Origin: Portibacter lacus
GTDB taxonomy: Bacteria; Bacteroidota; Bacteroidia; Chitinophagales; Saprospiraceae
NCBI RefSeq assembly: GCF_021533215.1
Contig: NZ_JAJNKA010000007.1
Location: 1 to 64,000, forward strand
Direction: 5' to 3'
DNA length: 64,000 nucleotides
Notes under the pieces: generated by a model
What the model was told of the DNA's origin: nothing
Databases searched by the model: none
The model's input: the letters and a program-made list of their open reading frames with translations, nothing else
Program-made: the position numbers and the translations under genes
Shown here: positions 1,308-18,297 of the stretch, piece by piece
Layout of the letters: each line of letters starts with the position of its first letter
Position numbering within the stretch: the stretch's first letter is position 1

Positions 1308-2162
1308 TTAATTTTCCATCCATTGATTTCGCTTCAAAGTTTTTACTTCGTATTTCCCGATCGAGTCCAATGGATAGGATTTCAGACCACCTCTTTCCTC
1401 GTGCGCCTGGAAAATATTGAAGTGTAAATGTGCTTCTGTCGTTTGTCCTGTTTTACCACTGAGAGCAATTGGTTGACCGACCGTTACATAATCGCCGATT
1501 TTGACTAAGCCACCGTCCTGCTTGATGTGTCCATACATGGCAAACAAGTGCGATGTGGTATCATAAACCAAAACCTGATTTCCAAACGGCTTCCATCTAT
1601 CACTCATCCCCCACCCGCTATATCCATCGATTAGTCCTACCACATAGCCATTTTGAGTAGAAGCGATGGTATCTCCAATTTTTAAGGTGAAATCAAACGC
1701 ATATCTAGAACCAAAAGTATGGTGTGTAGGATTCGAATTATTACCTTGTAAAAGTTTATAACGCTTCCCCTTCGGATAAGGGAGACTCGCTAAGCTATTA
1801 TTAGTGATAGGAAGATTAGAATTTCCCCATTTCATGCCGATCTTTACTTTGCCTTCGAGATCACCTTTACCCTTAATTATAATAGTGGAATCGGCCTTTG
1901 CATCTAGGTAAAGCGGCGAATAATCGCTCAGTATTTCATTCACTTCTTCGTCTGGACTAGTGAGTAGAAATCGCAAAGGACAATGTACCGGATTCTTAAT
2001 GCTTAATTGATATTCATCGTTTTCATACTTTTGGTCAACATCGATTTCGAATGCTGGCAATCTTTCCTTAGGAAGACTATGAAATGAACAGCTCGATAAC
2101 ACCAGACATCCAAAGAAGATGAATAATGATAATAAATTTTGTTTTAAAGTGAAATGACTCAT
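1308..2162 (-). CDS. M23 family metallopeptidase, lipoprotein
   Basis: Predicted outer-membrane or periplasmic lipoprotein of 284 residues. A hydrophobic signal ends in LSSC, making Cys25 the lipidated residue. The C-terminal half (about 145-255) is an M23/LytM peptidase fold: His147/His148, Asp157 in RYAFDF, His212 in MYGH and the HLH pair at 245-247 match the zinc ligands and catalytic His of peptidoglycan endopeptidases. The N-terminal 120 residues are a beta-rich domain I do not recognise. The likely role is cleavage of peptidoglycan cross-links. A TTAACATTGACC motif lies at 2229-2239, about 70 bases upstream of the start. Confidence 0.85.
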   Translation of the reverse strand: MSHFTLKQNLLSLFIFFGCLVLSSCSFHSLPKERLPAFEIDVDQKYENDEYQLSIKNPVHCPLRFLLTSPDEEVNEILSDYSPLYLDAKADSTIIIKGKGDLEGKVKIGMKWGNSNLPITNNSLASLPYPKGKRYKLLQGNNSNPTHHTFGSRYAFDFTLKIGDTIASTQNGYVVGLIDGYSGWGMSDRWKPFGNQVLVYDTTSHLFAMYGHIKQDGGLVKIGDYVTVGQPIALSGKTGQTTEAHLHFNIFQAHEERGGLKSYPLDSIGKYEVKTLKRNQWMEN

Positions 2163-2289: not shown

Positions 2290-2640
2290 TTAGATGAATG
2301 TACAAAGGGGACAAACCATCAGAGTATGCAATTGGGAGAGTGGCAGATCAACTCGTAGTAGTGATGAGACTTCTGTAATGGAGGTGGAGCGAAGGGGTTG
2401 ACATGTTCTGAATACTTTCATCTAATCAACCACCAGCTTACTTTTGGATGGGATGAGTTTAGTGGCATATTGATCCGTTAGTCATTGATTCAGAGGATAA
2501 ACATGAAGAGCCGTAGCTCCTAAACTGAAGCTTCGATGTAAGCATATGAGCTGAGAGGTTCACAGCCTGTCACGCTTTAGCGTGATACGGTTCTAAAGCT
2601 AAGGCGTTACAGGTAGTAAGAGGTTTTAAGTCACCTTTAC
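2290..2640 (+). other. Possible decayed group II intron (no ORF)
   Basis: This is the gene-free interval between the M23 peptidase and the defence operon. One frame at about 2356-2400 reads SSDETSVMEVERRG then stop, and the neighbouring frame reads GRVADQLVVVMRLL; both resemble, from memory, sequence just upstream of group II intron reverse-transcriptase genes. At 2508-2518 and 2586-2595 the pair AGAGCCGTA / TACGGTTCT matches the lower helix of intron domain V, but the spacing is too long for an intact domain. A second hairpin TCACGC-TTTA-GCGTGA lies at 2569-2584. No reverse transcriptase remains. This is an inference, not an identification. Confidence 0.35.
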
Positions 2641-2756
2641 CTACTCGATCTTTTCTTCAAACCTGCAAGCGTTGGCAGAAAACATACTCTTTCACAGTTT
2701 TGGTGGCTTTGAGCGGTGGCTATTCCATTCATATGTTCACTATATTAGTTTTTCTT

Positions 2757-4295
2757 TTAACGAGTTTGTTTTTCAGAATTTTCTTTTTCAATTTCAAAAG
2801 GAATTCGTAATAAATTATCTTTTATAAACTTTACTGTGTCGTGATTAATTCCACCAGTTTTGTTCCACGCTTTCCATTCTGAAACGCCATCATAAACGAC
2901 GTGTCTTAAAAATACTAGAACTCCATTATCATCCTTTATTTCTTGCCAATGTGGGTGATTAGGATTGAAAATTACAATGAGTGTATTATCATTTTCCTTT
3001 CTAACTGTATAATCTGTTAACACATATGGGTCATAGGACGACATATCTTCATCAGTATAAAGCTTTACTGTTAGACTACCTAGTTTGATTATTACAGGTT
3101 CGCTTATTCTATTTATTACCGCTTCTAATAAATAGCTATTAGCTTTTTCTAATGCCTTCTCGGGTGGTATTTCGATATTTTCAATTAAATCTGAGGCAAT
3201 TTCACTTTCCATTTCGTGATGTAAATTACCAAGAGCAATTTCTATTGTTTTAACATCCGAAACATCAACAGACTCTCTTACTCTTCTTGTTAATGCTATT
3301 CTAATTAAATCTATAACTTCTGCCTTTAATTTGTTTTCTAGTTCTTCTTCTTGCTCTCCTGACCATAGAATCTGGTCTTTAGTATGGCTAACATCAAAAC
3401 CATCTATAAAAATTTCACCGATTAATCTTTGATTAACTAAATCATTCCGACCGCCATCCTGTTCTCCGAAAATTTCACTTGGTCTATAATTCGTGTTTAT
3501 AACTCTATTTGATTGAACTAAAGCAAAACCAGCTTGACCTCTATCACCTCGATTTAAAACTCCAGCCCAACCTTTAACTGTTTTATCATCAACAACAAAC
3601 TCAAATTCTTTTTTTGTCCTTTCACCTTCAAAATTTTCAACTAATAATTTATCTAGATTTTTCCAAATTAGAAATTTATCCATCCATTTAATTTCAACAC
3701 TTTCGGATAATAAATCATATCTGTAGATAGAAGATAAATACGTCCTAACTTTTGAAAGAGTTCTACCTACAAACCTTCTATGTAAATCCCAAATTTTTAT
3801 TTTAGTGTAATGAGAATTTTCTTCTACATCTCTTTCCTCAATTTCTAATGTTATATTTCCATTTTGTATTTTTTCAATATCTACAAGGATTTTGTATTCT
3901 TTATTGTTTCCTAGACGAGTAGTAGTTACTGACCACTTATCACCAAGCCAAAATGAAGATGTCTTTAAGCCAAGACCATATTTACTTCTTCCAGTATTAA
4001 TTTCAGGTTTTTGACCAGTATTAAATGCTCTCCTTAAAACATCTTCATCCATACCAATAGAATTATCTAGAATTTCAATGAAATCTTCTGATAAGCTATC
4101 ACCTCTAAAATAATTTATATGAACATACAAGTTTTCACCATCTTCTGTCAATTGCTTATTTAAAAGCTCTATATTTTCGTAATAAGCTTGGGTTGAATTA
4201 TCAATGTATTCAGCAAGCGCATACCATAATTTATATGATAATCTTTTGTAGGATTCCGCAATATTGGCTGTAAACGTTAAATCTAGATTGTCCAT
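2757..4295 (-). CDS. GHKL (MORC-like) ATPase of defence operon
   Basis: About 512 residues with a histidine-kinase-like (GHKL/HATPase_c_3) ATPase at the N-terminus. The N box has Glu29 and Asn33 (LAEYIDNSTQ), the G1 box is DNSIGM (77-82) and the G2 box is SKYGLGLKTSSF (104-115). A transducer-like region with several conserved-looking strands follows, then a helical and beta-rich C-terminus. The arrangement resembles prokaryotic MORC/MutL-type ATPases reported in predicted restriction-modification operons. I chose the ATG at 4295 because it follows the upstream stop codon by one base (TAAAATG); an upstream ATG at 4322 would overlap the nuclease gene. It is the last gene of the operon. ATP-driven clamp action on DNA is inferred from the family. 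Confidence 0.82.
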   Translation of the reverse strand: MDNLDLTFTANIAESYKRLSYKLWYALAEYIDNSTQAYYENIELLNKQLTEDGENLYVHINYFRGDSLSEDFIEILDNSIGMDEDVLRRAFNTGQKPEINTGRSKYGLGLKTSSFWLGDKWSVTTTRLGNNKEYKILVDIEKIQNGNITLEIEERDVEENSHYTKIKIWDLHRRFVGRTLSKVRTYLSSIYRYDLLSESVEIKWMDKFLIWKNLDKLLVENFEGERTKKEFEFVVDDKTVKGWAGVLNRGDRGQAGFALVQSNRVINTNYRPSEIFGEQDGGRNDLVNQRLIGEIFIDGFDVSHTKDQILWSGEQEEELENKLKAEVIDLIRIALTRRVRESVDVSDVKTIEIALGNLHHEMESEIASDLIENIEIPPEKALEKANSYLLEAVINRISEPVIIKLGSLTVKLYTDEDMSSYDPYVLTDYTVRKENDNTLIVIFNPNHPHWQEIKDDNGVLVFLRHVVYDGVSEWKAWNKTGGINHDTVKFIKDNLLRIPFEIEKENSEKQTR

Positions 4296-4296
4296 T

Positions 4297-5085
4297 TTAA
4301 TTTTCTTTAATATAAAATTCATTATTCTCAGACTTAATAAGAAAGTACTTCTTATTGATATTGAGTGGATTTTGCCCTTTAGGTATTAAAAATGTTTTAT
4401 TTCCTTCATCAAGCCTTTCCCATTTAGTTTTACGCCCATTATCAATTAGTATAATTTCACAACCATCTTCAATGTTTAATATTTTTGGCGAGGAAACTAT
4501 AAGTGTATTAGCTGGGTATTTTGGGAATTTGCATCTAGAACGGTCAATTTCGATAATAGGATATTCGCCATCTATTCTGTAGGCTTCTATTCCATCTGGA
4601 TGGTCAAACATTCCAAAAACTAATATTCCAGTTCTGGGATAACTTTTAGCTTCTTCTGCCCATTTGGGATATTCATCTACCATTATAATTATTCCTGGTT
4701 CATCTCTAAGTATTAGCTTTCTTAATTCTTCTTGATTTATTTCAGGTTCTTTTGCAGCTAAATACTTTGAAATATCAGTTGAATTATATTTCCCATTTGA
4801 AAACACTCTTATTTGAGTTTCAGTATGACCTTTAAAGGGTTTTTTTGCTAATTCAACTTCTATAACATACCACCTGCTGTAATCTTTTTTAATTAAACAA
4901 AGGTCCGGCTGACTTGATTCGCCATTGTATAAAATCGTTTTTTTTAGTGGTAAGGTGTAATAATCTGGGAAAACGTCCTTAGAACGAGCTATTATTGTTC
5001 TTTCAAGAGTATCCTCGACATATGTACCTGGCTCGAACTCTTCGTACCAATCATCTAGAATTAATAATTTTGATTTACCCTTCAT
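4297..5085 (-). CDS. PD-(D/E)xK-like restriction endonuclease candidate
   Basis: A 262-residue protein. The N-terminal 110 residues carry a nuclease-like core: acidic residues in TLERTI (Glu28), Pro60-Asp61, then Glu76-Val-Glu78 in VIEVELAKK, followed by a helix with Gln91. This is the PD-x14-ExE spacing of PD-(D/E)xK nucleases, but the usual Lys is Glu. The C-terminal part is beta-rich and could bind DNA or a partner. It sits between the methyltransferase (2-base gap) and the MORC-like ATPase (1-base gap), where a restriction enzyme would be expected. No signal peptide or membrane segment. The nuclease call rests on motif and context; an exact family is not recognised. Confidence 0.65.
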   Translation of the reverse strand: MKGKSKLLILDDWYEEFEPGTYVEDTLERTIIARSKDVFPDYYTLPLKKTILYNGESSQPDLCLIKKDYSRWYVIEVELAKKPFKGHTETQIRVFSNGKYNSTDISKYLAAKEPEINQEELRKLILRDEPGIIIMVDEYPKWAEEAKSYPRTGILVFGMFDHPDGIEAYRIDGEYPIIEIDRSRCKFPKYPANTLIVSSPKILNIEDGCEIILIDNGRKTKWERLDEGNKTFLIPKGQNPLNINKKYFLIKSENNEFYIKEN

Positions 5086-5087
5086 AA

Positions 5088-6332
5088 TTACCCTAAAAAA
5101 TGTTTTGTGCTTTCTTGAATTAATTCATAAGTCACGGTTTTTTCTCCGTTTAATCTTTCATTATTAATAAAAGGATTTATATCTGAAACTATTACAATTC
5201 TATCAGTTGCTGTTGCTTTTCCCTTTGTTTCTCCCCAAATTCGTGTTGTTTTATCAACTCCTTGAATATAATCAGAAAAAACCCAAGTATTTTTAAATAA
5301 ATTATTTTCTTTTATCATCATTACAAATTCACGAGCCAAAGGGATAACACTTGTTGAAGAACGTGCAACGTCTCCAATGACGAAAACAGCAACACCATCA
5401 GGTCTTATCATTTCTTTAAATTGGAATGCTGTTTCTTTTGCAAACTTTACCCATTGATTGATGTTTAAATTATCATCTAATTTTTCAGATATTTCAGTTG
5501 GGTCAGATTCTAAAAACCAAGAACGAATCCAATTTTGTTTCGCATAATTTACAATTCCTAGATAAGGAGGCGATGTGAGAAGTAAATCTACTTTTCCTTT
5601 ATATTTAATTACATTCTGTGAGTTTAGTAAATTTTTAGCGTCACACTCAAAAATATTGGATTCAATTTGAGGTGATTTATGTTTTTTAAAAACACGTTCC
5701 ACCTTCTCTCTCAAAATATTGAAAACGTTTCTGTATTCACGACTTAGTTCTTTAGTTTGAACAAATCGTCTAACGTAATCTGGCGACATACTAAATGTGT
5801 TAGGCATACTTATAGAAAGATAACCTGAAGAACCATCCTTTCTAATACCACCGTGCATTATTCCCAAAATTGCACCGATAATAAATTGATCAGTTTTATC
5901 CTCTGAATTTAAAAGTTCAGATTTTAAAAAGCATAGTTCAGCAATGGTTCTTGAATGAAAAATCAAATGTATATCTTCGGATTCTCCTTCTGCCTCTGGA
6001 TGAAAGAGCGCATAATCATAGTAGGATTGTAAATCATTAATTCTATTGATTATATCTTCCTTTCTTATGTAATTACTTTTTGCTTTACTAAGAGCTAGAG
6101 CAATTGGATTTAAATCAGAACCAAAAGATTTTCTACCAAGCATTCTACTTTCCAAAATTGTAGTACCTCGACCAGAAAAAGGGTCAAATACTAAATCGTT
6201 TTTGTCTGTAAAATATTTTATAAAATAATTCGCTAATGAAGGCGGGAAAGCACCTAAATAGGAACAGAGAGAATGTAATGGGTCTGAATTATTCTTTTTA
6301 GCCCAGGGTGTAACATATTCTTCTATCATCAT
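5088..6332 (-). CDS. DNA methyltransferase (N4-cytosine/N6-adenine type)
   Basis: A 414-residue amino-methyltransferase. Motif I, the S-adenosylmethionine site, is DPFSGRGTT (50-58), followed by a motif-II-like GSDLNPIAL (71-79). The catalytic motif IV is TSPPY (253-257). Motif I precedes motif IV with about 190 residues between them, which may hold the target-recognition region (alpha-like order). SPPY is typical of N4-cytosine enzymes, but N6-adenine enzymes cannot be excluded. The start overlaps the stop of the upstream ATPase gene by one base (TAATG), indicating translational coupling. Its likely role is to mark self DNA for the operon's nuclease and ATPases. Confidence 0.88.
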   Translation of the reverse strand: MMIEEYVTPWAKKNNSDPLHSLCSYLGAFPPSLANYFIKYFTDKNDLVFDPFSGRGTTILESRMLGRKSFGSDLNPIALALSKAKSNYIRKEDIINRINDLQSYYDYALFHPEAEGESEDIHLIFHSRTIAELCFLKSELLNSEDKTDQFIIGAILGIMHGGIRKDGSSGYLSISMPNTFSMSPDYVRRFVQTKELSREYRNVFNILREKVERVFKKHKSPQIESNIFECDAKNLLNSQNVIKYKGKVDLLLTSPPYLGIVNYAKQNWIRSWFLESDPTEISEKLDDNLNINQWVKFAKETAFQFKEMIRPDGVAVFVIGDVARSSTSVIPLAREFVMMIKENNLFKNTWVFSDYIQGVDKTTRIWGETKGKATATDRIVIVSDINPFINNERLNGEKTVTYELIQESTKHFLG

Positions 6333-8587
6333 TAATTATCCGTTTCTTCATTAACATTTTCCGTAATTATCATTTCGAAGAAATCTGAAATCATACCACA
6401 AACAGTTTCACTTGCATTCATTAGTTCGTATTCTTTTAATTTTTGATAAGATTCTTCGGGAATTTGTTCATCGTCTTTTGAAAGAATTACATCAGGTCTA
6501 TTTTTATCAAGTATAAACGCATAGAAAGAAATGTGTTCCAAATATTTGTTTTTAATATCTTGAACAGCCGTATCATTTTTTCTTTGTGCTCTAGCAACAA
6601 GTTTAGTCAAGTTTTTATTTTCTACAGAAACCGATATTATCACTTCATCTTGACTGCTATTTACAACCGCAACATTATTTTCATCCCAATCATTTTCTTG
6701 ATAGTATAAATGCTCTTTATCTATAAACTCAACTCGAATATTTGGACTCTTATTTTTACCATCTTTATCAGATTTTGAATTTTCTACACTTTCCACTGCT
6801 ACTACATCTATTGAAGAACTCAACGATTTTTGTCCACTTGGTCTTAATTCTAGAGTTATTATTCCTTTCTCTCCAATTTCAGCATCTTCGTTTGTCTTAA
6901 AATATACAATACCATATCCATCACGAACGTTTGCTGTTCCAGTATAAGATCCAAATGATTGCGATTCAATGAATGCTACAAAAGTTTCAGTTTTTGCAAA
7001 GTAATTAGGATGAGCGTCAGTTTTAAATTTTATCGAAAATGGTTTGTTTGGATAAACTTCTTTAGGTGCTTTAGTAGTAATTTCAAAGAATGTTGGCGGG
7101 TCAGTAAATGGAATTTCAGGAAGTTTATTTGAAGAATCTCCATCATTAGCTGTGGTTGAAGTTGTAACACTTGTTCCATTTCCTGAGCTTTGAAGATATG
7201 TGTTAATTCTTCTTGCTAATCTTTTCTTCAAGCTATCTAGAACTTGTGAATCGTCTTTTGTGAAATACCTTTGTTTTCTGTTTCTATCAAGCTCTTTTAA
7301 CTTATCATCTGCATCTAATGTTGCAATCGTTAACTTTCTTAATTCTTCAAGAATTGAAGTGTCTCGTAATGATTCTCTTGTACTACTAAAAAGTTGTCTT
7401 TTGGAATCATTATCCATATGATCAGCCTCAATTTGAACGATAAGATATCTGTCTAAAAATGGTAGTTTTAGATCATTTTTAATAAGACCATTTAACATTG
7501 TGCCTTGTTTTTGACCGTTAAATGTTATAACTATTGGATGTGAAACTGTAGTGTAATTTTTGATTCTGTTTTTTGGATCTTCTCCTAAAGAATTTAGAAC
7601 CCACCAATAAATGGTTACATTTCCACTTTTGAATGTTTGACTTACTTTATTTTTATATTCTAAATTATCTGTGTATGTTAATAATCTATTATTTCCAGTA
7701 ACCGTTCTGTTTTCCTTACGGTTTTTTCTTCTGTCTGAAATAGTAAAGGGAAGAATAGGGTCAAACATATAGTTATGAGCCAAATACCAAAGTGAATTTG
7801 AAGGTGTCGTAATTTTACCTTTGAATTTCCCCAAATCCATTAAAATATGACGAACTAAAGTACCAGGTTCAAAAATTTCATCGTCAATCTCTATTGTAAA
7901 TGGTTGACCAGTTGATTTTTCAACCATATACTCGTACCATTCGTGTTTATCTTTATCCAAGTCTCCTTGGTTTATTCGAACTATAGTAAATGCTACCTTC
8001 TTTTTCTTTCTGCCGTCTTCGCTAAAAAAAGGTTTTGAAATAATTATAGTGTTGTTATTATAAGAAAGTGCTGTTGAGCCACCTTGACCATATGCACCCA
8101 TTAGATAAAGTTTACCAATTTTATTACTACCATTAAGCGCCAAAATTGTGTCTGAAAATTGCTCAGGTTCTAATCCGATTCCTTTGTCCCGTATTTCAAC
8201 AGTTGGTTTTTCGTCTATTCCTGAATCATAGAGGGTTACGCTAATTAAGTCAGAAAGAGTTTCAATTCTTTTGTCTCTAGCTGATTTAATATTCGATATT
8301 TTACCGTCTTCAATGTCATACCATTTTTCAGATGCTCTGCGCGGCGTCCTAAATCCATCTGGTTCGCCTTGGTTTTTCCATTCTTTTTCTAAAACAGCGT
8401 CTATTGCGTTAGTAATTCGTTCTGTTACTCCAGCTGCTGGGTCAGTTCCTATGTTTATTGTTGCTAAGTTGTTTCTTCTTCCTCCAACATCTTCCCATCG
8501 AATTTTAGAAAGTCCGATTTTTTGGATTAGTTCTCTTACGTCTTTTGGCGTGAATGCTGTAATTAAGTCTTGGTAAATATCTTTCAT
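6332..8587 (-). CDS. Large GHKL ATPase of defence operon
   Basis: A 751-residue protein with an N-terminal GHKL ATPase. The N box is ERITNAIDA (Glu56, Asn60), the G1 box DKGIGL (134-139) and the G2 lid GAYGQGGSTAL (164-174), with an insertion of about 60 residues between N box and G1. A transducer-like region runs to about residue 400 and a charged, probably helical linker to about 480. A Ser/Thr-rich hinge follows, then a beta-sandwich or Ig-like segment (about 490-610) and an alpha/beta C-terminus. Architecture and length differ clearly from the second GHKL ATPase in the operon. It is probably an ATP-gated DNA clamp or sensor. One-base spacings tie it to both neighbours. Confidence 0.82.
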   Translation of the reverse strand: MKDIYQDLITAFTPKDVRELIQKIGLSKIRWEDVGGRRNNLATINIGTDPAAGVTERITNAIDAVLEKEWKNQGEPDGFRTPRRASEKWYDIEDGKISNIKSARDKRIETLSDLISVTLYDSGIDEKPTVEIRDKGIGLEPEQFSDTILALNGSNKIGKLYLMGAYGQGGSTALSYNNNTIIISKPFFSEDGRKKKKVAFTIVRINQGDLDKDKHEWYEYMVEKSTGQPFTIEIDDEIFEPGTLVRHILMDLGKFKGKITTPSNSLWYLAHNYMFDPILPFTISDRRKNRKENRTVTGNNRLLTYTDNLEYKNKVSQTFKSGNVTIYWWVLNSLGEDPKNRIKNYTTVSHPIVITFNGQKQGTMLNGLIKNDLKLPFLDRYLIVQIEADHMDNDSKRQLFSSTRESLRDTSILEELRKLTIATLDADDKLKELDRNRKQRYFTKDDSQVLDSLKKRLARRINTYLQSSGNGTSVTTSTTANDGDSSNKLPEIPFTDPPTFFEITTKAPKEVYPNKPFSIKFKTDAHPNYFAKTETFVAFIESQSFGSYTGTANVRDGYGIVYFKTNEDAEIGEKGIITLELRPSGQKSLSSSIDVVAVESVENSKSDKDGKNKSPNIRVEFIDKEHLYYQENDWDENNVAVVNSSQDEVIISVSVENKNLTKLVARAQRKNDTAVQDIKNKYLEHISFYAFILDKNRPDVILSKDDEQIPEESYQKLKEYELMNASETVCGMISDFFEMIITENVNEETDN

Positions 8588-8588
8588 A

Positions 8589-8819
8589 TTAAAAGTTAAA
8601 AGATTCAGTATTGTTCTTGAGGTTCTTTTTGTATTGAATCTCCATTATTTTTAGTTCTTCCTTTATTGCTTTGACCATTTTATTCAAATCTTCTTCGTTA
8701 TACTCGTAATTATTAATATTTGAGCATTTTGAAAGACTACGAATTCCATTAAGGATGTTTTCAACGCGCCTTGAAGCTACTCGTTTAAATCGGTCTTCTT
8801 TCTTTTCAGAATTATCCAT
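8589..8819 (-). CDS. Small charged protein, first gene of defence operon
   Basis: A 76-residue, mostly helical and lysine-rich protein with no membrane segment. Visible features are FKRVASRRVENILNGIRSL and a central SKCSNINNYEYNEEDL, then a helix KMVKAIKEELKIMEIQYKK. Small proteins of this appearance occur beside methyltransferase and ATPase genes in mobile defence loci, but I cannot assign a domain. It ends one base before the large GHKL ATPase (TAATATG), so it is part of the operon. It could be a regulator, an antitoxin-like control element or a structural subunit. Confidence 0.7.
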   Translation of the reverse strand: MDNSEKKEDRFKRVASRRVENILNGIRSLSKCSNINNYEYNEEDLNKMVKAIKEELKIMEIQYKKNLKNNTESFNF

Positions 8820-8847
8820 ATTTTAGATATTCATTAATTTGTAGTAG

Positions 8848-8855
8848 CAAATATA
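8848..8855 (-). promoter_or_regulatory. Putative -7 box of the defence operon
   Basis: On the minus strand the bases read TATATTTG, an exact match to the Bacteroidota -7 consensus TAnnTTTG, 29 bases upstream of the 76-aa gene's start. No convincing -33 TTTG was found at the usual distance, so the call rests on one box and its position. Confidence 0.4.
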
Positions 8856-8914
8856 AAAATACATACTACATATTATTAAATATAGTTGAATATTTCATCG
8901 CGAAGGCTAAGAAG

Positions 8915-8970
8915 CAGCACTTTTATTTTAGAGAGTTGGCTTTTTGCATTGGCAAAAAATAAATGTGCTG
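8915..8970. repeat. Imperfect palindrome beside the defence operon
   Basis: The arms 8915-8929 and 8956-8970 (CAGCACTTTTATTTT and AAAATAAATGTGCTG) are complementary with one mismatch over 15 bases. A nested hairpin TTTTTGC-ATTG-GCAAAAA lies at 8941-8958. The GTTGGC core recurs a little downstream (about 8979). It lies in the 0.9-kb gap between the defence operon and the TonB receptor, where no supported gene was found. It could be a recombination-site relic, a mobile-element end or a terminator-like structure. Confidence 0.4.
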
Positions 8971-9657
8971 TTTGTTTGTTGGCGTTTTAGCACAATATTC
9001 TATGGTTTGCACGTTTTCTAACATCCCAGGCTCTCTTTATCGTATCAAAAGGATGCACAGCTATGTGTTGTGATTTAACTTTCAAGGGAATGGATCTGCT
9101 ATCCTATGAAGAAGTACGAAGCAAGGACTCTTTTTATGACTCTTATAATGAAATATAAGTTTATATGAATTCCCGAGGATAATATATAGTCATCCATCCA
9201 ACTTATAAATTTCCAAAGTATCTTGCCAGCATTATTCCTTTTAACCACTTCAACTTTGACCTACCTCGAATAATTAAAATCGCATTAACAACTTAATAAC
9301 ATTAAAGGAATCAATACCCTCTAGTCTTCCATCGATGAAGCCAAAAAAAACTAATAATCAACATGAGCGAATCATTCTCAAATTCACATGGGATCAGCCA
9401 TCTAGAGCTAAGCTATCCAGATATAAAAACGTGATACTTGCTCGCCATCACACCAGCATTATTCATAAGTTTTACAATTAATCGCATCCACTATAGCAAG
9501 CTTATTATTTACCATTAGAACTTTTCCTTGATCCACCATAACCCAAAAATTGACCTAAACCGCTATAATCTATATGATTAGCCGAACATTCCATATGCTC
9601 TTAGATTCAATAGTCAATGGGTGATTTTTTTTGACCAAATAATGCTAAATATTGCTG

Positions 9658-9725: not shown

Positions 9726-9734
9726 ACATTGCCT

Positions 9735-12700
9735 ATGAAATTCAGATATACATACTCATGTTGTATTAGCTGCCTTGTATTCCTCTTTATGACCTTGACT
9801 GCCAATGTCTATGGTCAAGAAAAGGGTGCTCTTTCAGGTAAGATTATTGATCAAAATAGCCAAGAAGCTCTTGCCTTTTCTACCATTGGAATCCCTAAAC
9901 TGGGAATTGGAACCACTTCTGATATCGATGGGTTTTATCGACTTTTGAATATTCCATATGGAGATCATGAAGTAATTATAGAATATGTTGCTTATGAGAC
10001 AAAATCAGTCACGATTACGATCGATTCGGCGGATAATGTCTATAACGTGGGCTTATTCGAAAGTGGGATAGAAATGGAACAAGTGGTGGTGACCGCTCAA
10101 GCGCTAGGGCAAAGAGCCGCGATCAATCGTCAGATTAATTCGAATACCATCGTGAATGTGGTGTCTAAGCAAAAGCTACAAGAACTACCTGATCAGAATG
10201 CAGCGGAATCTGTAGGAAGACTTGCGGGAGTTTCTGTCTATCGTGATGCAGGGGAAGGTCAGCAAGTTTCTATTCGAGGTATTTCTCCTAGATTTAATAA
10301 TATCACTGTGAATGGGGAAAGACTTCCATCTACGGATCAAGAGACTCGTGCAGTAGACCTCAGTATGATTTCTACTGATGCACTAGAAGGTATAGAAGTG
10401 TTCAAAGCGACTCGACCTGATATGGATGGTGATGCCATCGGTGGAACGGTCAATTTTACCATTCGGAAGGCTGATCCTTACTGGAAATCTTCTCTGAGGA
10501 TCCTCGGTGGATACAATGATCTGAAAAGTGATTTTGGTCAATTTAGAGGTTCTGGTTCTGTGGGGAATCGATTTTTCAAGGACAAACTCGGTATTATCCT
10601 CGCTGGAAATTATCAAAAGGTGAATAGAAGTAATGAATTTCTAAGTTCTACTTATGAAAACTTAGGTGAAGATCCGAACACTGGCGAGCCGATTATTCAA
10701 GTATCTAGCTTAAATCTGGGCGATCGAATAGAAAAGCGGGAACGATACGGTGGTGTGACAACGATAGATTATAAATTTTCTGAAGATCACAAGATAGTGT
10801 TTTCTGGAAGTCTGAGTAAGTTAATCCGAAATGATGAACAGTATAGAAGAAGGTTTCGAGTGGCCGATAATGAGCAACGTTTCACTGCTCGGACGCGTCA
10901 GCGAAATACGAATGTAACGACCAGCAATCTTTCTGGAACACACTTGTTTGGAAGTTTAGAAATGACCTGGAGAGGTTCTTATTCTCGGTCTATCCAGAGA
11001 GAGCCGTATTCACTTCAAGCTCAGTTTTGGGAATTAGCAGCAACGACGGGTGATTTTGTCGATAGGAATGATCTGACTACAGTGCCTTCTATTTTCAAGA
11101 ACAGACTGGAACAAACGACGCTAAGAGATATGTCGCTAGAGTCTGATTTTGTTGATGAAAAAAGAAAGTCGTTTCAGATTGATTTCAAGCAAAACTTGGT
11201 CCGAAATAGCAAGTATAATGCTTATCTGAAATTCGGTGGGAAGTATCGTGATGTAAGCAGAGGTCGAGATGCGAATGCGCATTTTATGAGGACATATCTG
11301 AATGGTGATGAAAATCCTGCAAAAGCTAATCCAGGATTATTTCTGACTAGAGCTGGAAATCAGATTCTATTAGCTAATTTCTTAGGAGATTATCAAAATG
11401 GTAACTTTTATAACGGTCAGTATGATTTATTGCCAGGTACACCAGATCTCAGAAATTCTTTGACGACTCCATTAGATAATGTGAATGTAGATGAATTCAA
11501 TGCTTTATTCGGTACTAATTATGGAGCTGGAGATGGATTGCCGTATACGGGACATATAGACATCGATAAAGTGGTAAGTTTTTATGAAGCTTTCAGAGCG
11601 AAGCACTCGATGGTTAATGGAGTAGTCGATCTGACAGACTACGATGGTAAGGAAGCAATCTATGCTGGGTACTTGATGTCAGAATTCAATTACAATGATT
11701 GGTTCATGCTAATGGGTGGTGTGCGATATGAAAGAACAGACCAGAGTTACACCAGTAGAACAGGTAGTCCGCGTGAAGAAGGTGATGGCGGGACTGGACT
11801 AATCGAAATTACTGATGTGACTGCTGCACAAGGATATGGAGAATTACTCCCGATGGGACATATGCGTATTAAATTAAAGAAATGGTTCGATGTTCGAGCG
11901 GCAGTGACGAAAACACTTGCTCGGCCTAATTTCTTCAATTTGGTGCCGTGGGAAAGTATTAATAATGCTGAGCAAACGATTCAGAGAGGGAAACCAGATC
12001 TGAAGCATACGACGGCGATTAATTATGACTTATTCCTATCTTTCTATGATAAATTTGGACTGTTTACAATAGGTGGTTTTTACAAGGAATTAGATAACAT
12101 CGATTACTTGAAAACCATTGCGATTGTGGAGCCTGGGAACATATATAACGGATATTTGCTAACAGAACCTTCTAATGTAGAGGGTACTTCTACAGTATTT
12201 GGAACAGAATTAGATCTTCAGGTCAATTTTAGATCTCTTAAAGGATTTATGAATGGGTTCTTATTGGGCGCGAATCTGACGTTAGCGAAATCTAATACCT
12301 ACTATCCTTTGTTCGAGGTCAATACTTCGTTTATTCCACAACCACCATTTTTTGTAACAACACTGATCGATACGTTCAGAACTGGGCCGATCGTAGGTCA
12401 GGCGGACCTCATAACGAATCTAACACTAGGATATGAAAAAAGCGGATTCTCCGGAAGGATTTCTGCAGTTTATCAGTCCAGAGCATTGTCTCCTGGTAGT
12501 TCAGATGTGGGAGGCACAAGTTCAGGTGTAGGTCGGATTCCAGAATTAGATTTTTATGATGATGGGTTTTGGCGATTTGATGTTGCACTGAAGCAGAAAC
12601 TTTCGAAAAAAATACCACTTACTTTAATAGCTAATATCAATAATCTCAGTAACACACCAGAAAGAACCTTATTAGGCACTAGAAGCTTGCTGACAGATGA

Positions 12701-12758
12701 GGAATACTTTGGGTTTACAGTCGATTTTGGTATATTATATACATTTGTAAATCAATAA
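9735..12758 (+). CDS. TonB-dependent receptor
   Basis: Outer-membrane receptor of 1007 residues importing a substrate with TonB energy. A signal peptide ends near residue 27 (ANVYG). A carboxypeptidase-regulatory-like beta-sandwich (about 30-115), a plug domain (about 130-245; QQVSIRGIS, TVNGERLPS and RPDMDGDAIGG) and a beta-barrel ending in YTFVNQ follow. RPDMDGDAIGG is characteristic of the subfamily first described in Xanthomonas and Caulobacter, often linked to plant or algal glycans and lacking a SusD partner. Indeed no SusD is present. I use the ATG at 9735; an in-frame TTG at 9729 is less likely. It begins the glycan operon and is followed 14 bases later by a secreted beta-helix protein. 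Confidence 0.93.
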   Translation: MKFRYTYSCCISCLVFLFMTLTANVYGQEKGALSGKIIDQNSQEALAFSTIGIPKLGIGTTSDIDGFYRLLNIPYGDHEVIIEYVAYETKSVTITIDSADNVYNVGLFESGIEMEQVVVTAQALGQRAAINRQINSNTIVNVVSKQKLQELPDQNAAESVGRLAGVSVYRDAGEGQQVSIRGISPRFNNITVNGERLPSTDQETRAVDLSMISTDALEGIEVFKATRPDMDGDAIGGTVNFTIRKADPYWKSSLRILGGYNDLKSDFGQFRGSGSVGNRFFKDKLGIILAGNYQKVNRSNEFLSSTYENLGEDPNTGEPIIQVSSLNLGDRIEKRERYGGVTTIDYKFSEDHKIVFSGSLSKLIRNDEQYRRRFRVADNEQRFTARTRQRNTNVTTSNLSGTHLFGSLEMTWRGSYSRSIQREPYSLQAQFWELAATTGDFVDRNDLTTVPSIFKNRLEQTTLRDMSLESDFVDEKRKSFQIDFKQNLVRNSKYNAYLKFGGKYRDVSRGRDANAHFMRTYLNGDENPAKANPGLFLTRAGNQILLANFLGDYQNGNFYNGQYDLLPGTPDLRNSLTTPLDNVNVDEFNALFGTNYGAGDGLPYTGHIDIDKVVSFYEAFRAKHSMVNGVVDLTDYDGKEAIYAGYLMSEFNYNDWFMLMGGVRYERTDQSYTSRTGSPREEGDGGTGLIEITDVTAAQGYGELLPMGHMRIKLKKWFDVRAAVTKTLARPNFFNLVPWESINNAEQTIQRGKPDLKHTTAINYDLFLSFYDKFGLFTIGGFYKELDNIDYLKTIAIVEPGNIYNGYLLTEPSNVEGTSTVFGTELDLQVNFRSLKGFMNGFLLGANLTLAKSNTYYPLFEVNTSFIPQPPFFVTTLIDTFRTGPIVGQADLITNLTLGYEKSGFSGRISAVYQSRALSPGSSDVGGTSSGVGRIPELDFYDDGFWRFDVALKQKLSKKIPLTLIANINNLSNTPERTLLGTRSLLTDEEYFGFTVDFGILYTFVNQ

Positions 12759-12772
12759 TTAAATTAATCGAT

Positions 12773-14326
12773 ATGAATAAAGTTATTTACACCGTTTTAG
12801 CCATATTCATTTTGTCCATTTCAGCTAATGCACAAAGTGAATTAATCATTGAGCCAGGTGCACCTGGAGTTATCAATTCTGCCATCGAGGGCGACACGAT
12901 GGCCACTGGAGAAAGAGTAGACAGTAATAGAGTCTATATTTTACGAAGAGGTTTTCCTTATATTTTATCCGGAACGATAGAATATAGTGATTACAACTTA
13001 ATTATTAAATCTGAAGATACAGATGGTGAAAAACCGTTTGTCATCATGGACTCTGACGGAGATGCGGCAGACCAAATGATACGAACAAGAGGAGAAGCCA
13101 GCTTAACTTTAGATGGCTTACACATATCTGCCAAGGATATTTTAGGTGGTTATACCCTGAGAGTAATCAGAATTAATTCTGATAATTCTAACATCATTGT
13201 CAAGAATTGTATCATTGATGATGTAGGACAAGCTGCTGTTAGAATTCAAGGAGATAATGGAAATATTCAATTAACGAACAATGTTTTCAGAAACATCGGA
13301 AGACCGTTTGATCCAGCTAATGGAAGAGTTTTTGATAATAGAGGGAATCCAGTCGATACCTTATTAATGGAGAACAATGTTTTCTATAATGTAACGAGTA
13401 GAGTTTACAGAGATGGAGGTTCTTCTTCTCTAGGATACGCGAAAATCAACCAAAATACAATCTGGGGAACTGGAAGACTTGGAATGACGTTCGGAGAAAT
13501 TTCTAGCTTAGAATTTACGAATAACATTTATGCTAATGGAATGTTCCTAGGAGTATTAGAAACAGATCAAGATACAGCTGAAACAGCAGAATTTCAGATT
13601 AGCATAGACACTTTTGATGCTAGCGTAAATACGATCACTGTTAGCAATAACAACTTTTATACAGATCAAGGAATTTCTGATCTTTTTCCATTAACCAATG
13701 TAAATGGTGAAAACGTAGTTTCTGCTGAAACTTACTTGTTTAATCCTGAAGTACAAGCAGCAATTGATGCAGCAGGTAATGGAGACACGAATATTTCAGA
13801 GGAATTAGAATTCACTAAAGCACCATCACTTCCACTTCAGTTTATTAATGCTGTTGCAACGGATACTTCTAGTTCAGGAGTTCCTACTGCTGAAAATTGG
13901 GATTTGTCAGACTTAGAGTCTGATGCTGACCTTACTTCATTAGGTACTGGATCTGATATCAGATATAGAGAAGTACATGATTTCGGTTATCCTACAACTG
14001 CTGTATCTTATACTGCAGGAACGGAAGGCCAGCCGATCGGTTCACTGACAGAAGTTTCATCTAGTACTTCAGACTACTTTGTTGAAAATAATGTGTTGTT
14101 TTATCCAAACCCAGTTTCACAAAGACTGTATGTTCAGAACCTGAGAAATAGTAATCTTCACCAGGTGAATATTTACAATCTGAATGGACAATTAGTGAAG
14201 CAAATTAGAAATATAGACCATAACATTCTAGAAATTAATACGTCTAATTTTGCGAATGGTACTTATATTTTGAGCTTGATCGATACGAGAGGAAACGTAA
14301 GCTCACAAAAATTCATGAAACAATAG
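12773..14326 (+). CDS. Secreted beta-helix protein with T9SS sorting tail
   Basis: A 517-residue extracellular protein. A signal peptide ends after ISANA. Residues about 90-260 are short repeats rich in Asn and Ile (NIIVKNCIIDD, LTNNVFRNI, MENNVFYNV, TNNIYANG), typical of right-handed parallel beta-helices found in polysaccharide lyases and chondroitinase-B-like folds; DUF4957/DUF5123-type proteins look similar. The C-terminal 75 residues begin FYPNPVSQRLYV and contain NGTYIL, a type IX secretion type A sorting domain, so it is exported and anchored or released outside. No catalytic residues could be assigned. It probably binds or cleaves the glycan imported by the adjacent receptor. Confidence 0.85.
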   Translation: MNKVIYTVLAIFILSISANAQSELIIEPGAPGVINSAIEGDTMATGERVDSNRVYILRRGFPYILSGTIEYSDYNLIIKSEDTDGEKPFVIMDSDGDAADQMIRTRGEASLTLDGLHISAKDILGGYTLRVIRINSDNSNIIVKNCIIDDVGQAAVRIQGDNGNIQLTNNVFRNIGRPFDPANGRVFDNRGNPVDTLLMENNVFYNVTSRVYRDGGSSSLGYAKINQNTIWGTGRLGMTFGEISSLEFTNNIYANGMFLGVLETDQDTAETAEFQISIDTFDASVNTITVSNNNFYTDQGISDLFPLTNVNGENVVSAETYLFNPEVQAAIDAAGNGDTNISEELEFTKAPSLPLQFINAVATDTSSSGVPTAENWDLSDLESDADLTSLGTGSDIRYREVHDFGYPTTAVSYTAGTEGQPIGSLTEVSSSTSDYFVENNVLFYPNPVSQRLYVQNLRNSNLHQVNIYNLNGQLVKQIRNIDHNILEINTSNFANGTYILSLIDTRGNVSSQKFMKQ

Positions 14327-14360
14327 TAGCATCGTTTGTATAGCTGCGGAAAAAATATTA

Positions 14361-14399
14361 AAATCCAATCCTAATTTCGACCATTAGGATTGGGTTTTT
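14361..14399 (+). terminator. Rho-independent terminator
   Basis: CCAATCCTAA and TTAGGATTGG pair across a nine-base loop and are followed by GTTTTTA, 35 bases after the beta-helix gene stop. This ends the two-gene transcript, so the GH20-like gene downstream needs its own promoter or readthrough. A second small hairpin, GAATAGC-ATT-GCTATTC, lies at 14492-14508 before that gene; its role is unclear. Confidence 0.8.
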
Positions 14400-14555
14400 A
14401 TTAAAGTCATTCTTGGACTCGATCTTGAGGAATACTTAATCGTAGTGCTTGGACGGTTCAGCAGTATCATAACGTAAGCATAATTCTATTCGAATAGCAT
14501 TGCTATTCTTGAGACATACCTGAAACTCTTTTTTAAATCATTATAAGTCGATAAT

Positions 14556-17009
14556 TTGAAGATATCATATTACAATTTGTTTTTATGTGTTGCGCTGTGC
14601 TTAATGCCCATTGCCGCTCATTTACAAGATTTGCATTTGATTCCTAGCCCACAATCGGTAGAGATCAACGAAGAAATATTTGACGTATCCAAGCGTCTAA
14701 CAACCTATAGTTTATTAAAAGTAGAAAATGAGCATCCAGTTAAAGAACAAATTGACCTGCTTCTAAAAGAATTTAAAGCCAAAGGTAGTAACCAAGGTGG
14801 AAATTTTCTGTGGTATGGTACCGTAGGTGATGATGTACTTTTAAGTAAGTACTGTCAAAAAAATAAAATAACCATTCCAGCGCATCGCGAAGGTTATGCG
14901 CTTCATGTTTCGAATGATACTATTATCGTAGCAGCTGGTAAAAAGGAGGGCGTACTTTATGGACTTTATACACTGGAGCAACTAGTGAACAATACGAATA
15001 ACAATAAATTGCCGAGTGTTTCCATCATCGATTATCCTAATTATGACAACAGGTCAATTATGGATGATATTAGTAGAGGGCCACTTTCGAATATGGACTT
15101 TCTGAAGTCTCAAGTGAAGAGAATGTCTAAGCTAAAGATCAATAATCTTACTTTCTATATAGAACATGTTGTGAAGACAAAAAGTCATCCAGATTTTGCC
15201 CCAGATGATGCAATCACCATTGCAGAATTCGAGGAATTGACTGAATTCGCGAAACCTTTCAATGTAGAAGTAATGGGTGGTTTCCAATCCTTGGGCCATT
15301 TTAGAAATATATTAAGCAGCGAGACTTACCGTCATCTAGGACAGACCGACCGAATGCTAAAGCCTGGTGATCCAGCGTCACTAGATTTTTTGACAAAGGT
15401 ATACGGGGAAATGCTTCCTGCTTTTTCTTCAGAATACTTTAATATTTACGCAGATGAAGCATGGGACTTGGTGAGAATGGACGAAGGGTTAGAGGTAGAT
15501 AGTTCAGCTGCGGCATTGCGTTATATTAATCATGTGAATCCACTTTTGAAATTTTTAACTGATCGAGGAAAGAAGCCTATCATAGCTAGTGATATGCTTT
15601 TATCTTTTCCAGAGACCATCGACTTGTTATCTAAGAAAGCGACAATTCTAAGTTGGGTCTATGATGATTTAGACAACTATGACGCATGGATAGAACCATT
15701 TAGAGAAGTAGGACTCGAATATTGGGTTTGTCCGGGAATTCTTAATTCCTATTCTGTTTTTCCAGATTATGATGTAGCATTTAACAATATTGAGAAGTTT
15801 GTCAATGCAGGACATGAAAAAGATGCCTTAGGCGTAATGACTTCTGTGTGGGATGATGGATCGGCTCACTTTTTTGCTAGAGACTGGCCTGCGGTAGCAT
15901 TTGCTGCTCACCAAAGTTGGAAACCAGTGAGGAATGATCAAGCCAATTTCAATCGAGACTTTTCTTTCTTGATGTTTGGTGATGAAAATAAATCGTTGCG
16001 AGATTGCATTTCAGGAATTAGCGAACTCCAGCATACGAAGACGGTTGAAAATTTAGGAACTACCTTCCTAGATGAGTACTTATTACCTGATGCAGGACAA
16101 GTGCATTACCTGAACACGAATGAGTCAGAAACCATTTCTAAAATTATAAAAGAGGGAAAATCTTGTCTAGATGAAGTTGCGGATGTAGATGACGGTGCAG
16201 CCAATGAATGGACGGATGATCTTGAAGCTTGGCATTTTGCCTTGGATCAGATTTTACTGCAAGTAAAGAGTTATGAGAAGCTAATAGCCTTATCATCCCT
16301 TTATTCTAAAGGAGATTTGGATGCTGTTTCTAGTGAATTGGAAACGTTAGCCACTGAATGGAAAGGACTAAAAGAAAGATTTTCAGCTTTGTGGAAGATC
16401 GAAAACCGTGATTATTGGCTTGATGAAGAATTAAAGATTTACAATCGAAAAATAGAGCGCCTTTTGAAATTGAAAGATAAAATTGACGCATTAGACCAAA
16501 AGAAAACCAAATTACCAACTGCCGGTTCTGTAGGAATCGATATTAGACCATTGGATAAGGAATACTTTACCTATTGGTTGATATCCGAAAGATTTCCAAC
16601 TCAGAATGAATCTGACATTGACAAAGATTATATAGGAAGCTTAGGTGGTGAGAAAGAGGCCATCCCTACCCCATACGATTGGACTAAGTATCAATCGCCA
16701 TATTCATACAAAATAAACTTCGACGAAGTTTCGGAAAAGTCGATCGTTTATTTATATAGCAGAATAGAAGCGCCAGAACAGATTAAAGTTGTTCCAGAAG
16801 TAGGTTTTTCAGGTCAATGGAAGATGATATTAAATGGAGAAGAAACAACTAATAGCAAGGAGAAAGATAACCGAATTGTACTAGAAGAAGGTAATAACCA
16901 CATCATCATGAAGATAGCGTTAGCGCCTGGAATAGATCAAATTCAGTTTAGCTTAAAAGATATAAATACCACTAATAAAAAATACAAATACAAATTAAAA
17001 TCAGAATGA
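14556..17009 (+). CDS. GH20-like beta-N-acetylhexosaminidase
   Basis: An 817-residue periplasmic or secreted enzyme likely removing terminal N-acetylhexosamine from glycans. Residues 1-23 are a signal peptide. An N-terminal GH20b-like domain (about 25-155, including GYALHVSNDTIIVAAG and EGVLYGLYTLEQL) precedes a TIM barrel. The barrel has Asp300-Glu301 in YADEAW, matching the catalytic Asp-Glu pair of GH20 substrate-assisted enzymes, although the surrounding GxDE motif is altered. The C-terminal 250 residues are helical and then a beta-sandwich, perhaps carbohydrate binding. The start is TTG at 14556; the signal peptide supports it. It overlaps the next gene by four bases (ATGA). Confidence 0.8.
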   Translation: MKISYYNLFLCVALCLMPIAAHLQDLHLIPSPQSVEINEEIFDVSKRLTTYSLLKVENEHPVKEQIDLLLKEFKAKGSNQGGNFLWYGTVGDDVLLSKYCQKNKITIPAHREGYALHVSNDTIIVAAGKKEGVLYGLYTLEQLVNNTNNNKLPSVSIIDYPNYDNRSIMDDISRGPLSNMDFLKSQVKRMSKLKINNLTFYIEHVVKTKSHPDFAPDDAITIAEFEELTEFAKPFNVEVMGGFQSLGHFRNILSSETYRHLGQTDRMLKPGDPASLDFLTKVYGEMLPAFSSEYFNIYADEAWDLVRMDEGLEVDSSAAALRYINHVNPLLKFLTDRGKKPIIASDMLLSFPETIDLLSKKATILSWVYDDLDNYDAWIEPFREVGLEYWVCPGILNSYSVFPDYDVAFNNIEKFVNAGHEKDALGVMTSVWDDGSAHFFARDWPAVAFAAHQSWKPVRNDQANFNRDFSFLMFGDENKSLRDCISGISELQHTKTVENLGTTFLDEYLLPDAGQVHYLNTNESETISKIIKEGKSCLDEVADVDDGAANEWTDDLEAWHFALDQILLQVKSYEKLIALSSLYSKGDLDAVSSELETLATEWKGLKERFSALWKIENRDYWLDEELKIYNRKIERLLKLKDKIDALDQKKTKLPTAGSVGIDIRPLDKEYFTYWLISERFPTQNESDIDKDYIGSLGGEKEAIPTPYDWTKYQSPYSYKINFDEVSEKSIVYLYSRIEAPEQIKVVPEVGFSGQWKMILNGEETTNSKEKDNRIVLEEGNNHIIMKIALAPGIDQIQFSLKDINTTNKKYKYKLKSE

Positions 17010-18295
17010 GGAAATCCATGAAAGTTACCAATACTCTAAATTTTAATGCCTTAAGGTTAGTCGTTGTACTTTTCTTTTCGTTTTCAAGTTGCCAGTTTGC
17101 CATAGGGCAAAGTGCGAACAAAGCGGAAATAGCGAAAGTCGAGAAAATACTATCTGAATTAGGGACTTATGCTACAGATGTGCTACTAGATGAAGAAGGA
17201 AAATCTAGATGTGATTATAATATGATAGAAGGAAAATGGTATCCATATGAAGAACCGTGGCACACGGGGCAGATCATTTATGGACTTCTAGAAGCGTACA
17301 GAGTGACAAATGAAGAGCGCTTTCTTACTGCAGCGACAAAAGCTGGAGACTGGTGGACATCACTAGAAATCAAAGATCACCCGAAATTAAAAGGGATGGT
17401 GAATGCTCAGCATGCAGACCATGCTGGAGACGTTATTGTTTTCGCTACGGTTTCTGATGGAAGTGCTGGATTATTCGAATTACACAAAGTGACGAAAGTG
17501 GATAAGTATGCGAGAGTTCCGACCCAAGCTGGAGCTTGGATGCTAGAAAATATGTGTGAGATGGATCTAGGACTTTGTTATGACAGTGCGGATCCAGAAA
17601 CGGGAGAAGTATATAAGGAATACAGTCCATTTCATAGAGACAAGAAAAACCAAACCATTAAAGATGTAGCAAGACCTAATAATGAAGGTTCGATTTTTCT
17701 GGACATGTATCGATATACATCGAACGAAAAATACAAGGATGCTTTCATCAAGCTTTGTAATAGTGTCTTAGAAACTCAGGATGAACACGGATTATGGATG
17801 GATTTCATGCCTAATCATATCGATGTAAATACTTTCCACCCGAGATTTAATCTTTGGTACGCTGAAAGTTTATTGAATGGATATGATTTAACTGGAGATG
17901 AGAAATACCTCGTAGGCGCTAAGAAGACAGTCGATCGATATGTGGAAGCGCAACTAGAAAGTGGCGTGATTTATTATGAGAATTTCTTGGATGGAACGTA
18001 CACTAAAAATTCAATTTGTGGATCTGCAGTTGCCTTTAATGCTTTGCTGATGATCCGACTAGAAGGTTATGGTTACGGAAGTGATCTTTATAAAGAAAGG
18101 ATAAAACTAAGCTCGGATTGGTTGATAAAGAATCAGTTTGCGACGGATCACCCAGATGAGAACTTGAGAGGAGCAATCATGAATATACGGACGAGATATC
18201 GTAAGAACAAGCACTGGATAGTGAATCGAGACGTGGGATCTTCTTTTGGGCTTAGATTTTTTGCAGCTTACCATGATTACCTTCAAGTAAAATAA
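17006..18295 (+). CDS. (alpha/alpha)6-barrel glycan enzyme
   Basis: A 429-residue protein with a signal peptide or lipobox-like segment (FSFSSCQF) near residue 30. The rest is helical hairpins with aromatic-rich turns such as YEEPWHTGQIIYGLLEAY, PNNEGSIFLDMYRYT and FNLWYAESLLNGYDLTGDEKYL, as in six-hairpin glycosidases, unsaturated glucuronyl hydrolases (GH88/GH105) and glucuronyl C5-epimerases. I cannot decide among these. Translationally coupled to the GH20-like gene and three bases before the transporter gene, it likely processes a uronic-acid or related residue of the same glycan. Confidence 0.65.
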   Translation: MRKSMKVTNTLNFNALRLVVVLFFSFSSCQFAIGQSANKAEIAKVEKILSELGTYATDVLLDEEGKSRCDYNMIEGKWYPYEEPWHTGQIIYGLLEAYRVTNEERFLTAATKAGDWWTSLEIKDHPKLKGMVNAQHADHAGDVIVFATVSDGSAGLFELHKVTKVDKYARVPTQAGAWMLENMCEMDLGLCYDSADPETGEVYKEYSPFHRDKKNQTIKDVARPNNEGSIFLDMYRYTSNEKYKDAFIKLCNSVLETQDEHGLWMDFMPNHIDVNTFHPRFNLWYAESLLNGYDLTGDEKYLVGAKKTVDRYVEAQLESGVIYYENFLDGTYTKNSICGSAVAFNALLMIRLEGYGYGSDLYKERIKLSSDWLIKNQFATDHPDENLRGAIMNIRTRYRKNKHWIVNRDVGSSFGLRFFAAYHDYLQVK

Positions 18296-18297
18296 AG

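What the first reader, a model, noticed from the sequence alone, without database searches (positions are those of the whole stretch)
2757..8819. Five-gene defence operon with two different GHKL ATPases
The genes are a 76-aa protein, a 751-aa GHKL ATPase, an SPPY methyltransferase, a PD-(D/E)xK-like nuclease and a MORC-like GHKL ATPase, spaced by -1 to +2 bases. MORC/MutL-like ATPases in restriction-modification operons were predicted by Iyer, Abhiman and Aravind (2008). This set lacks the helicase of many such systems and pairs two unlike ATPases with a nuclease, so it may be a distinct or poorly described subtype.
Basis: partly seen in the sequence, partly recalled or inferred. Interest (0 to 1): 0.82.

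Follow-up and report, generated by a model that had tools for sequence, protein, structure and literature searches.

The report
Swappable two-ATPase DNA-modification defence operon
This is a probably acquired bacterial operon that most likely marks the cell's own DNA by methylation and attacks unmarked DNA with a nuclease and two different MutL-like ATPases; its marking half and its attacking half have been exchanged independently between bacteria.

Summary
Five packed minus-strand genes encode a 76-aa protein, a GHKL ATPase (GHKL_A), an N6/N4-family DNA methyltransferase, a nuclease-like protein and a MORC ATPase. The same five genes in the same order occur in 8 of the 80 loci returned by a scan with the MORC protein, all Bacteroidota. 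Gene 5 carries the MORC S5 motif; gene 2 does not. PADLOC has no model for genes 2, 4 and 5. The kind was predicted in 2008: helicase-less MORC operons, some with a second GHKL, paraMORC1. So it is a new variant, not a new kind. The surprise is modularity. Genes 1-3 are 93-96% identical to Galbibacter orientalis, whose genes 4-5 are only 35-48% identical; genes 4-5 are 85-86% identical to a Cytophagales genome, whose genes 1-3 are 73-88% identical. Trees of the two halves conflict, and nucleotide similarity breaks at the gene 3/4 border. Best reading: R-M-like defence in which genes 1-3 recognise and mark DNA and genes 4-5 are an exchangeable effector. Function is untested; the nuclease call rests on conserved residues alone.

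The parts
8820..9017 (-). Conserved leader upstream of gene 1 (probable promoter region)
   Evidence: 78.7% identical to the same place in L051 and 72.2% (169 columns) in L048; no promoter was shown, consensus hits are at the shuffled level
8589..8819 (-). Gene 1: 76-aa protein of unknown function
   Evidence: Relatives in the 8 five-gene loci at 43-96% identity, also next to GHKL_A in L014 (E=4e-18) and in viral contigs L137/L138; database hits only weak (PADLOC CARF model E=0.016; Pfam sub-threshold)
6332..8587 (-). Gene 2: GHKL_A, remote GHKL ATPase with about 300-residue C-terminal extension, candidate paraMORC1
   Evidence: MORC motif absent in 0 of 16 cluster members having it
5088..6332 (-). 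Gene 3: DNA methyltransferase, N6/N4 family, motif I FDPFSGRGTT at 49-58 before TSPPY at 253-257
   Evidence: Pfam N6_N4_Mtase E=1e-20; PADLOC MTase_II E=8.5e-37; residues 22-98 resemble N4-cytosine MTases of known structure
4297..5085 (-). Gene 4: probable PD-(D/E)xK-type nuclease, E-x-E variant
   Evidence: Near-invariant acidic and H/Q residues in 51 aligned members; no fold or family match
2757..4295 (-). Gene 5: prokaryotic MORC ATPase (longest ORF starts at 4322; relatives support 4295)
   Evidence: HATPase_c_3 E=3.9e-18; exact MORC motif GFALVQSNRVI at 265-275 of the 521-aa ORF
5062..5087 (-). Border of the two halves: nucleotide match to Galbibacter orientalis (L051) stops here
   Evidence: 87.9% identity over 9017-5062, then only 64.6% and 66.0% pieces in gene 5
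2650..2707 (-). Downstream flank shared again with L051
   Evidence: 82.8% identity over 58 bases beginning 50 bases after gene 5

Best explanation
A helicase-less, MORC-type, restriction-modification-like defence made of two exchangeable halves. Genes 1-3 (76-aa protein, GHKL_A, methyltransferase) recognise a DNA site and methylate it in the host. Genes 4-5 (nuclease and MORC) are the effector. The MORC dimer probably closes on DNA when it binds ATP, as MutL-like proteins do, and licenses the nuclease where the genes 1-3 complex finds its site unmethylated. Shown: gene content, motifs, conserved order, independent exchange of the two halves. Inferred: the defence role, that the nuclease takes its specificity from genes 1-3, the clamp mechanism, and the methylated base (SPPY suggests N4-cytosine; a recalled rule).
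For: Five genes in one order in 8 other genomes. MTase and MORC identified; nuclease-like conserved residues. The MTase is 93% identical to that of L051 while the nuclease beside it is 35% and the MORC 48% identical; trees conflict with AU p of 7.3e-05 and 1.3e-05. The nuclease-MORC pair also sits beside an unrelated, shorter MTase type, with or without a helicase. GHKL_A is found next to MTases without genes 4-5 (L012, L151, L136, L143). Low G+C (29.4-32.4% against 37.8-38.5% either side) fits acquired DNA.
Against: No functional data. Gene 4 has no detectable relation to a known nuclease family, and none to the DUF4420 nucleases of MZA-like loci; no structure could be predicted. A nuclease at 35% identity could still cut the same site. 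Two or more exchanges in nine loci are few. A good number of GHKL_A relatives (10 of 15 genomes) have no MTase or second GHKL directly beside them, so GHKL_A is not tied to this context.
Confidence: 0.5

Rival explanations
1. An ordinary Type II-like R-M system: gene 4 recognises and cuts its own site, gene 3 protects the same site, and the two ATPases only assist. The site stayed the same while nuclease and MORC were replaced.
For: MTase plus nuclease in one operon; the MTase is similar along its whole length in the nine loci, with no swapped recognition segment visible, as expected if the site never changed.
Against: The same nuclease family works beside an unrelated MTase type and with helicases; classical Type II enzymes do not need two GHKL ATPases (recalled).
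Confidence: 0.27
2. Two separate defences lie side by side: a GHKL_A-MTase unit (genes 1-3) and a nuclease-MORC unit (genes 4-5) that happen to share a promoter.
For: GHKL_A with an MTase occurs without genes 4-5; the two halves have different histories.
Against: Spacings of -4 to +9 bases and a fixed order in nine loci. Most of the nuclease-MORC loci also have an MTase beside them, so the second unit would lack its usual MTase here.
Confidence: 0.12
3. The mosaic is only a difference in evolutionary speed between the halves.
For: In most pairs of the nine loci genes 4-5 are less alike than genes 1-3.
Against: The order reverses: L048 is nearer than L051 in genes 4-5 and farther in genes 1-3. 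Identity drops at 5062 and returns at 2707. Each tree is rejected on the other data.
Confidence: 0.03
4. Not defence but an epigenetic or repair module (for example MTase-guided DNA remodelling by the two ATPases).
For: Nothing here tests defence; MORCs in eukaryotes remodel chromatin (recalled); GHKL_A pairs with an MTase alone in some loci.
Against: Patchy distribution (10 of 395 and 9 of 395 genomes with any GHKL_A match), low G+C, exchange of halves, and relatives in predicted R-M operons.
Confidence: 0.08

Closest known systems
Prokaryotic MORC / paraMORC operons of Iyer, Abhiman and Aravind 2008 (PMC2292703; text parts 1-3 of 4 read)
   Same: MORC with MTase and endonuclease, no helicase, and a second GHKL with C-terminal extension is described in words.
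   Different: The predicted set is described only in outline; no experiment, no mention in the text read of the 76-aa protein, of this nuclease family, or of exchange between the halves. Direct sequence comparison with their paraMORC1 was not possible.
MZA system (seen as passages in PMC9523054; PADLOC and NCBIfam models)
   Same: MORC/MutL-like ATPase beside an MTase and a nuclease-like gene in the MZA-like relatives (L036, L037, L108). Gene 5 matches MzaB far below cut-off.
MTase-nuclease-MORC and MTase-helicase-nuclease-MORC loci found here (11 and 33 of 79 classified genome loci)
   Same: Homologous nuclease and MORC.
   Different: Shorter MTase of another type; an SF2 helicase in 33 loci; no GHKL_A and no 76-aa protein.
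Shedu with GHKL domain, VcSduA / paraMORC3 (PMC12137116, passages)
   Same: GHKL ATPase controlling a nuclease; there both were needed for phage defence.
   Different: Single protein with DUF4263 nuclease; no MTase. No DUF4263 match in the window operon.
Dnd-PbeABCD (PMC6459918 and PMC10853773, passages)
   Same: A modification module paired with a separable restriction module; the authors report weak co-variation of the two (rho 0.107). The helicase of the related locus L061 matches the SF2 part of PbeA (E=1.7e-76).
   Different: Phosphorothioation and an ABC ATPase instead of methylation and GHKL; no Pbe model matched the five window proteins.

Membership tests
Prokaryotic MORC (gene 5) | GHKL motifs intact | tested here: met
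   E38, N42, D86, G90, G116, G118, T173 and K315 the same in 38 of 38 aligned relatives
Prokaryotic MORC (gene 5) | S5 motif GhXhhpXXRhl (Iyer 2008) | tested here: met
   GFALVQSNRVI at 265-275; my pattern is found in 64 of 85 members of its cluster, so 21 deviate from the strict pattern, while G265 and R273 are kept in 38 of 38 aligned
paraMORC1 (gene 2) | GHKL motifs intact, MORC motif absent | tested here: met
   (22 of 22 for nine positions); MORC motif in 0 of 16
paraMORC1 (gene 2) | Occurs in helicase-less MORC operons with MTase or endonuclease | tested here: met
   Window and 8 relatives
[quoted passage not shown]
   Residues after about 450 are conserved with invariant P498, T523, D524, G557, P615 in 22 rows
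paraMORC1 (gene 2) | Sequence kinship with the published paraMORC1 rows | not testable with these tools
   The 2008 figures and supplement are not held
Classical R-M system | Linked DNA MTase | tested here: met
   Gene 3
Classical R-M system | Linked restriction endonuclease | tested here: inconclusive
   Conserved residues fit PD-(D/E)xK; no family or structure match; structure prediction off
Classical R-M system | Methylation protects host DNA from the linked nuclease | not testable with these tools
   Needs methylome and phage assays
Shedu / paraMORC3 | C-terminal DUF4263 nuclease fused to GHKL | tested here: not met
   No such Pfam match in genes 2 or 5

The most novel reading that the evidence does not exclude
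A plug-in defence: the methyltransferase and GHKL_A half alone decides which DNA is self, and it accepts interchangeable, sequence-non-specific nuclease-MORC effector cassettes, which bacteria swap by recombination at the gene 3/4 border to outrun phage inhibitors.
Probability: 0.35. Interest if true: 0.72.

Novelty: new variant of a known kind. Interest (0 to 1): 0.52.

Why it matters
Bacterial MORC proteins are the proposed ancestors of the eukaryotic MORC chromatin ATPases. In the eight literature searches made here (most entries seen only as listings) I saw no experiment on an operon of this layout. Natural chimeras of this operon separate marking from attacking and show where to cut and swap, so the open question of what MORC ATPases do in bacterial DNA defence becomes directly testable in a compact five-gene unit.

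Tried and rejected

Limits and dropped rows. The genome scan returned the best 80 of 149 relatives and was seeded with gene 5, so proportions are not population frequencies. L098 is missing from the architecture count because a longer antisense ORF displaced its MORC in my ORF pruning. A5 holds 50 of the 60 members of the gene 4 cluster (240-300 aa) plus the window. A8 holds 37 of the 82 MORCs of 480-570 aa (every second one, four of those left out) plus the window. A6 leaves out L138, L141, L143 and L020 among others. The clades for the AU tests were chosen after seeing the identities. The cluster C4 genes are called cytosine-5 MTases by analogy with L036, not scanned one by one.

Full report
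Observation. Five ORFs on the minus strand run from 8819 down to 2757. Spacings are +1, -1, +2 and, with the start of gene 5 that relatives support (ATG at 4295), +1; the longest ORF of gene 5 would overlap gene 4 by 26 bases. The genes are poorer in G+C (29.4-32.4%) than the DNA before (37.8%) and after (38.5%) them, as expected of acquired DNA.

What the proteins are. Gene 3 is a DNA methyltransferase of the N6/N4 family, with motif I before TSPPY. Gene 5 is an HATPase_c_3 protein with the exact S5 motif by which Iyer et al. unify MORCs; a strict pattern for that motif fits 64 of 85 members of its cluster. Gene 2 is a second, remote GHKL protein: sub-threshold in Pfam by itself, but 12 of 22 family members match HATPase_c_3 at E<=0.1, and nine key positions are the same in 22 of 22. 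The MORC motif is in 0 of 16 members of its cluster. Gene 4 has no significant database relative. Across 51 members D61 and W72 are invariant, and E24, E28, E76, E78, H87 and Q91 are kept in 46-50. That looks like a PD-(D/E)xK active site with an E-x-E ending, as recalled for BamHI. Gene 1 has only weak matches.

Co-occurrence. A scan of the genome collection with gene 5 and one relative gave 149 relatives; the best 80 were kept. Eight hold all five genes in the same order: a Cytophagales MAG (L048), Flagellimonas beolgyonensis (L049), Polaribacter aestuariivivens (L050), Galbibacter orientalis (L051), Leeuwenhoekiella blandensis (L053), an Aquimarina (L054), a Bacteroidetes MAG (L055) and another Galbibacter (L096). 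Of 79 classified genome loci (L098 dropped) the rest are: 11 MTase-nuclease-MORC, 18 with a helicase before the nuclease, 15 with the helicase between MORC and nuclease, 17 MZA-like, 2 with the gene 3 type of MTase beside nuclease and MORC, 4 nuclease-MORC with other neighbours, 4 other. Helicases from two such loci (L035, L061) are SF2 proteins by Pfam. In the MORC tree (quick method) the nine five-gene rows lie with 11 three-gene and 2 other helicase-less rows in a starred group of 22; the five-gene label needs 3 changes, of which starred branches force 2.

GHKL_A outside the operon. In 15 other genomes found with gene 2, one has the five genes (probably the L055 record again). L014 has the 76-aa relative, GHKL_A, a calcineurin-like phosphoesterase and another HATPase_c_3 protein, with a MutH-type nuclease gene upstream. 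L017 has GHKL_A next to an HATPase_c_3 protein. L012 and L151 have GHKL_A next to a different N6/N4-type MTase. The other 10 have none of these directly beside GHKL_A. Among 8 viral contigs none has genes 4-5; L136 and L143 have an MTase in tandem, L140 and L142 one on the opposite strand, L137 and L138 the 76-aa relative. So pairing of GHKL_A with an MTase, with the small protein, or with another GHKL recurs but is not universal.

Mosaic. Identities of the window to L051 are 96, 95, 93, 35 and 48% for genes 1-5; to L048 they are 88, 73, 78, 86 and 85%. At nucleotide level the 87.9% match to L051 runs from 9017 to 5062 and stops 24 bases into gene 4; a 58-base match at 82.8% returns at 2707-2650, just after gene 5. 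Trees of genes 1-3 join the window to L051 (100/100) and reject window+L048 (p-AU 7.3e-05). Trees of genes 4-5 join it to L048 (100/100) and reject window+L051 (p-AU 1.3e-05). The group L050, L051, L053, L096 is a clade for genes 4-5 and is rejected for genes 1-3 (p-AU 3.5e-45). The clades were chosen after seeing the identities, and L055 and L054 have long branches, but log-likelihood differences of 594 and 854 leave little room. Genes 4-5 have thus been exchanged as a block, between flanks that stayed alike.

Mechanism. Most likely genes 1-3 carry the self/non-self decision and genes 4-5 are the effector. The argument is an MTase almost unchanged beside a nuclease only 35% identical, and the same nuclease-MORC pair serving an unrelated MTase type. 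If the nuclease had its own site, such a swap should be dangerous unless the site stayed the same; that remains a real rival, since the MTase shows no swapped recognition segment. ATP-driven clamping of DNA by the MORC is inferred from MutL-like proteins in general; Iyer et al. proposed DNA looping.

Known or new. Iyer et al. 2008 (PMC2292703, parts 1-3 of 4 of the text read) describe MORC neighbourhoods with MTases or endonucleases but no helicase, a subset of them with paraMORC1. Their species list includes L. blandensis. That genome has 17 HATPase_c_3 matches, two of them equally strong: the MORC of this operon and one other protein, so their entry may or may not be this one. A search for 'paraMORC' gave 7 papers, one an obvious false match. 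Besides the 2008 text I saw the outline and abstract of PMC8011034 and passages of PMC12137116, PMC9523054, PMC10853773, PMC6459918 and PMC13092281. In those and in the listings I saw no experiment on this five-gene layout; the library lacks preprints and most subscription journals. I therefore rate it a new variant of a known kind.

Noticed in passing
window 2331-2471: A 141-base element downstream of the operon recurs in the one same-genus genome searched (two copies at 93-94%, two shorter pieces at 92% and 81%), and part of it matches, inverted, the upstream flank of the L051 operon at 78%. It is single in the window's own genome and matches no Rfam family.
   Followed up: partly
L014:3518-13705: A larger relative: probable cytosine-5 MTase, MutH-type nuclease, 239-aa gene, 76-aa relative, GHKL_A, calcineurin-like phosphoesterase and an HATPase_c_3 protein in one row on one strand. 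It may be another two-GHKL system with different nucleases.
   Followed up: partly
L136:1254-4510, L012:8459-11853, L151:7093-10387: A two-gene unit of an N6/N4-type MTase and GHKL_A with no nuclease-MORC pair beside it; in L136 it follows a phage-type integrase gene in a viral contig. What such a pair does is unclear.
   Followed up: no
window 9729-20446: Next to the operon, on the plus strand, lies what looks like a carbohydrate-use cluster: a long outer-membrane-receptor-like ORF (judged by eye, not scanned), a secreted beta-helix protein with a Por secretion tail, a GH20-like protein and a xylose-isomerase-like protein.
   Followed up: no
window 1308-2162: An M23-family peptidase with a lipoprotein-like start lies downstream of the operon.
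   Followed up: no
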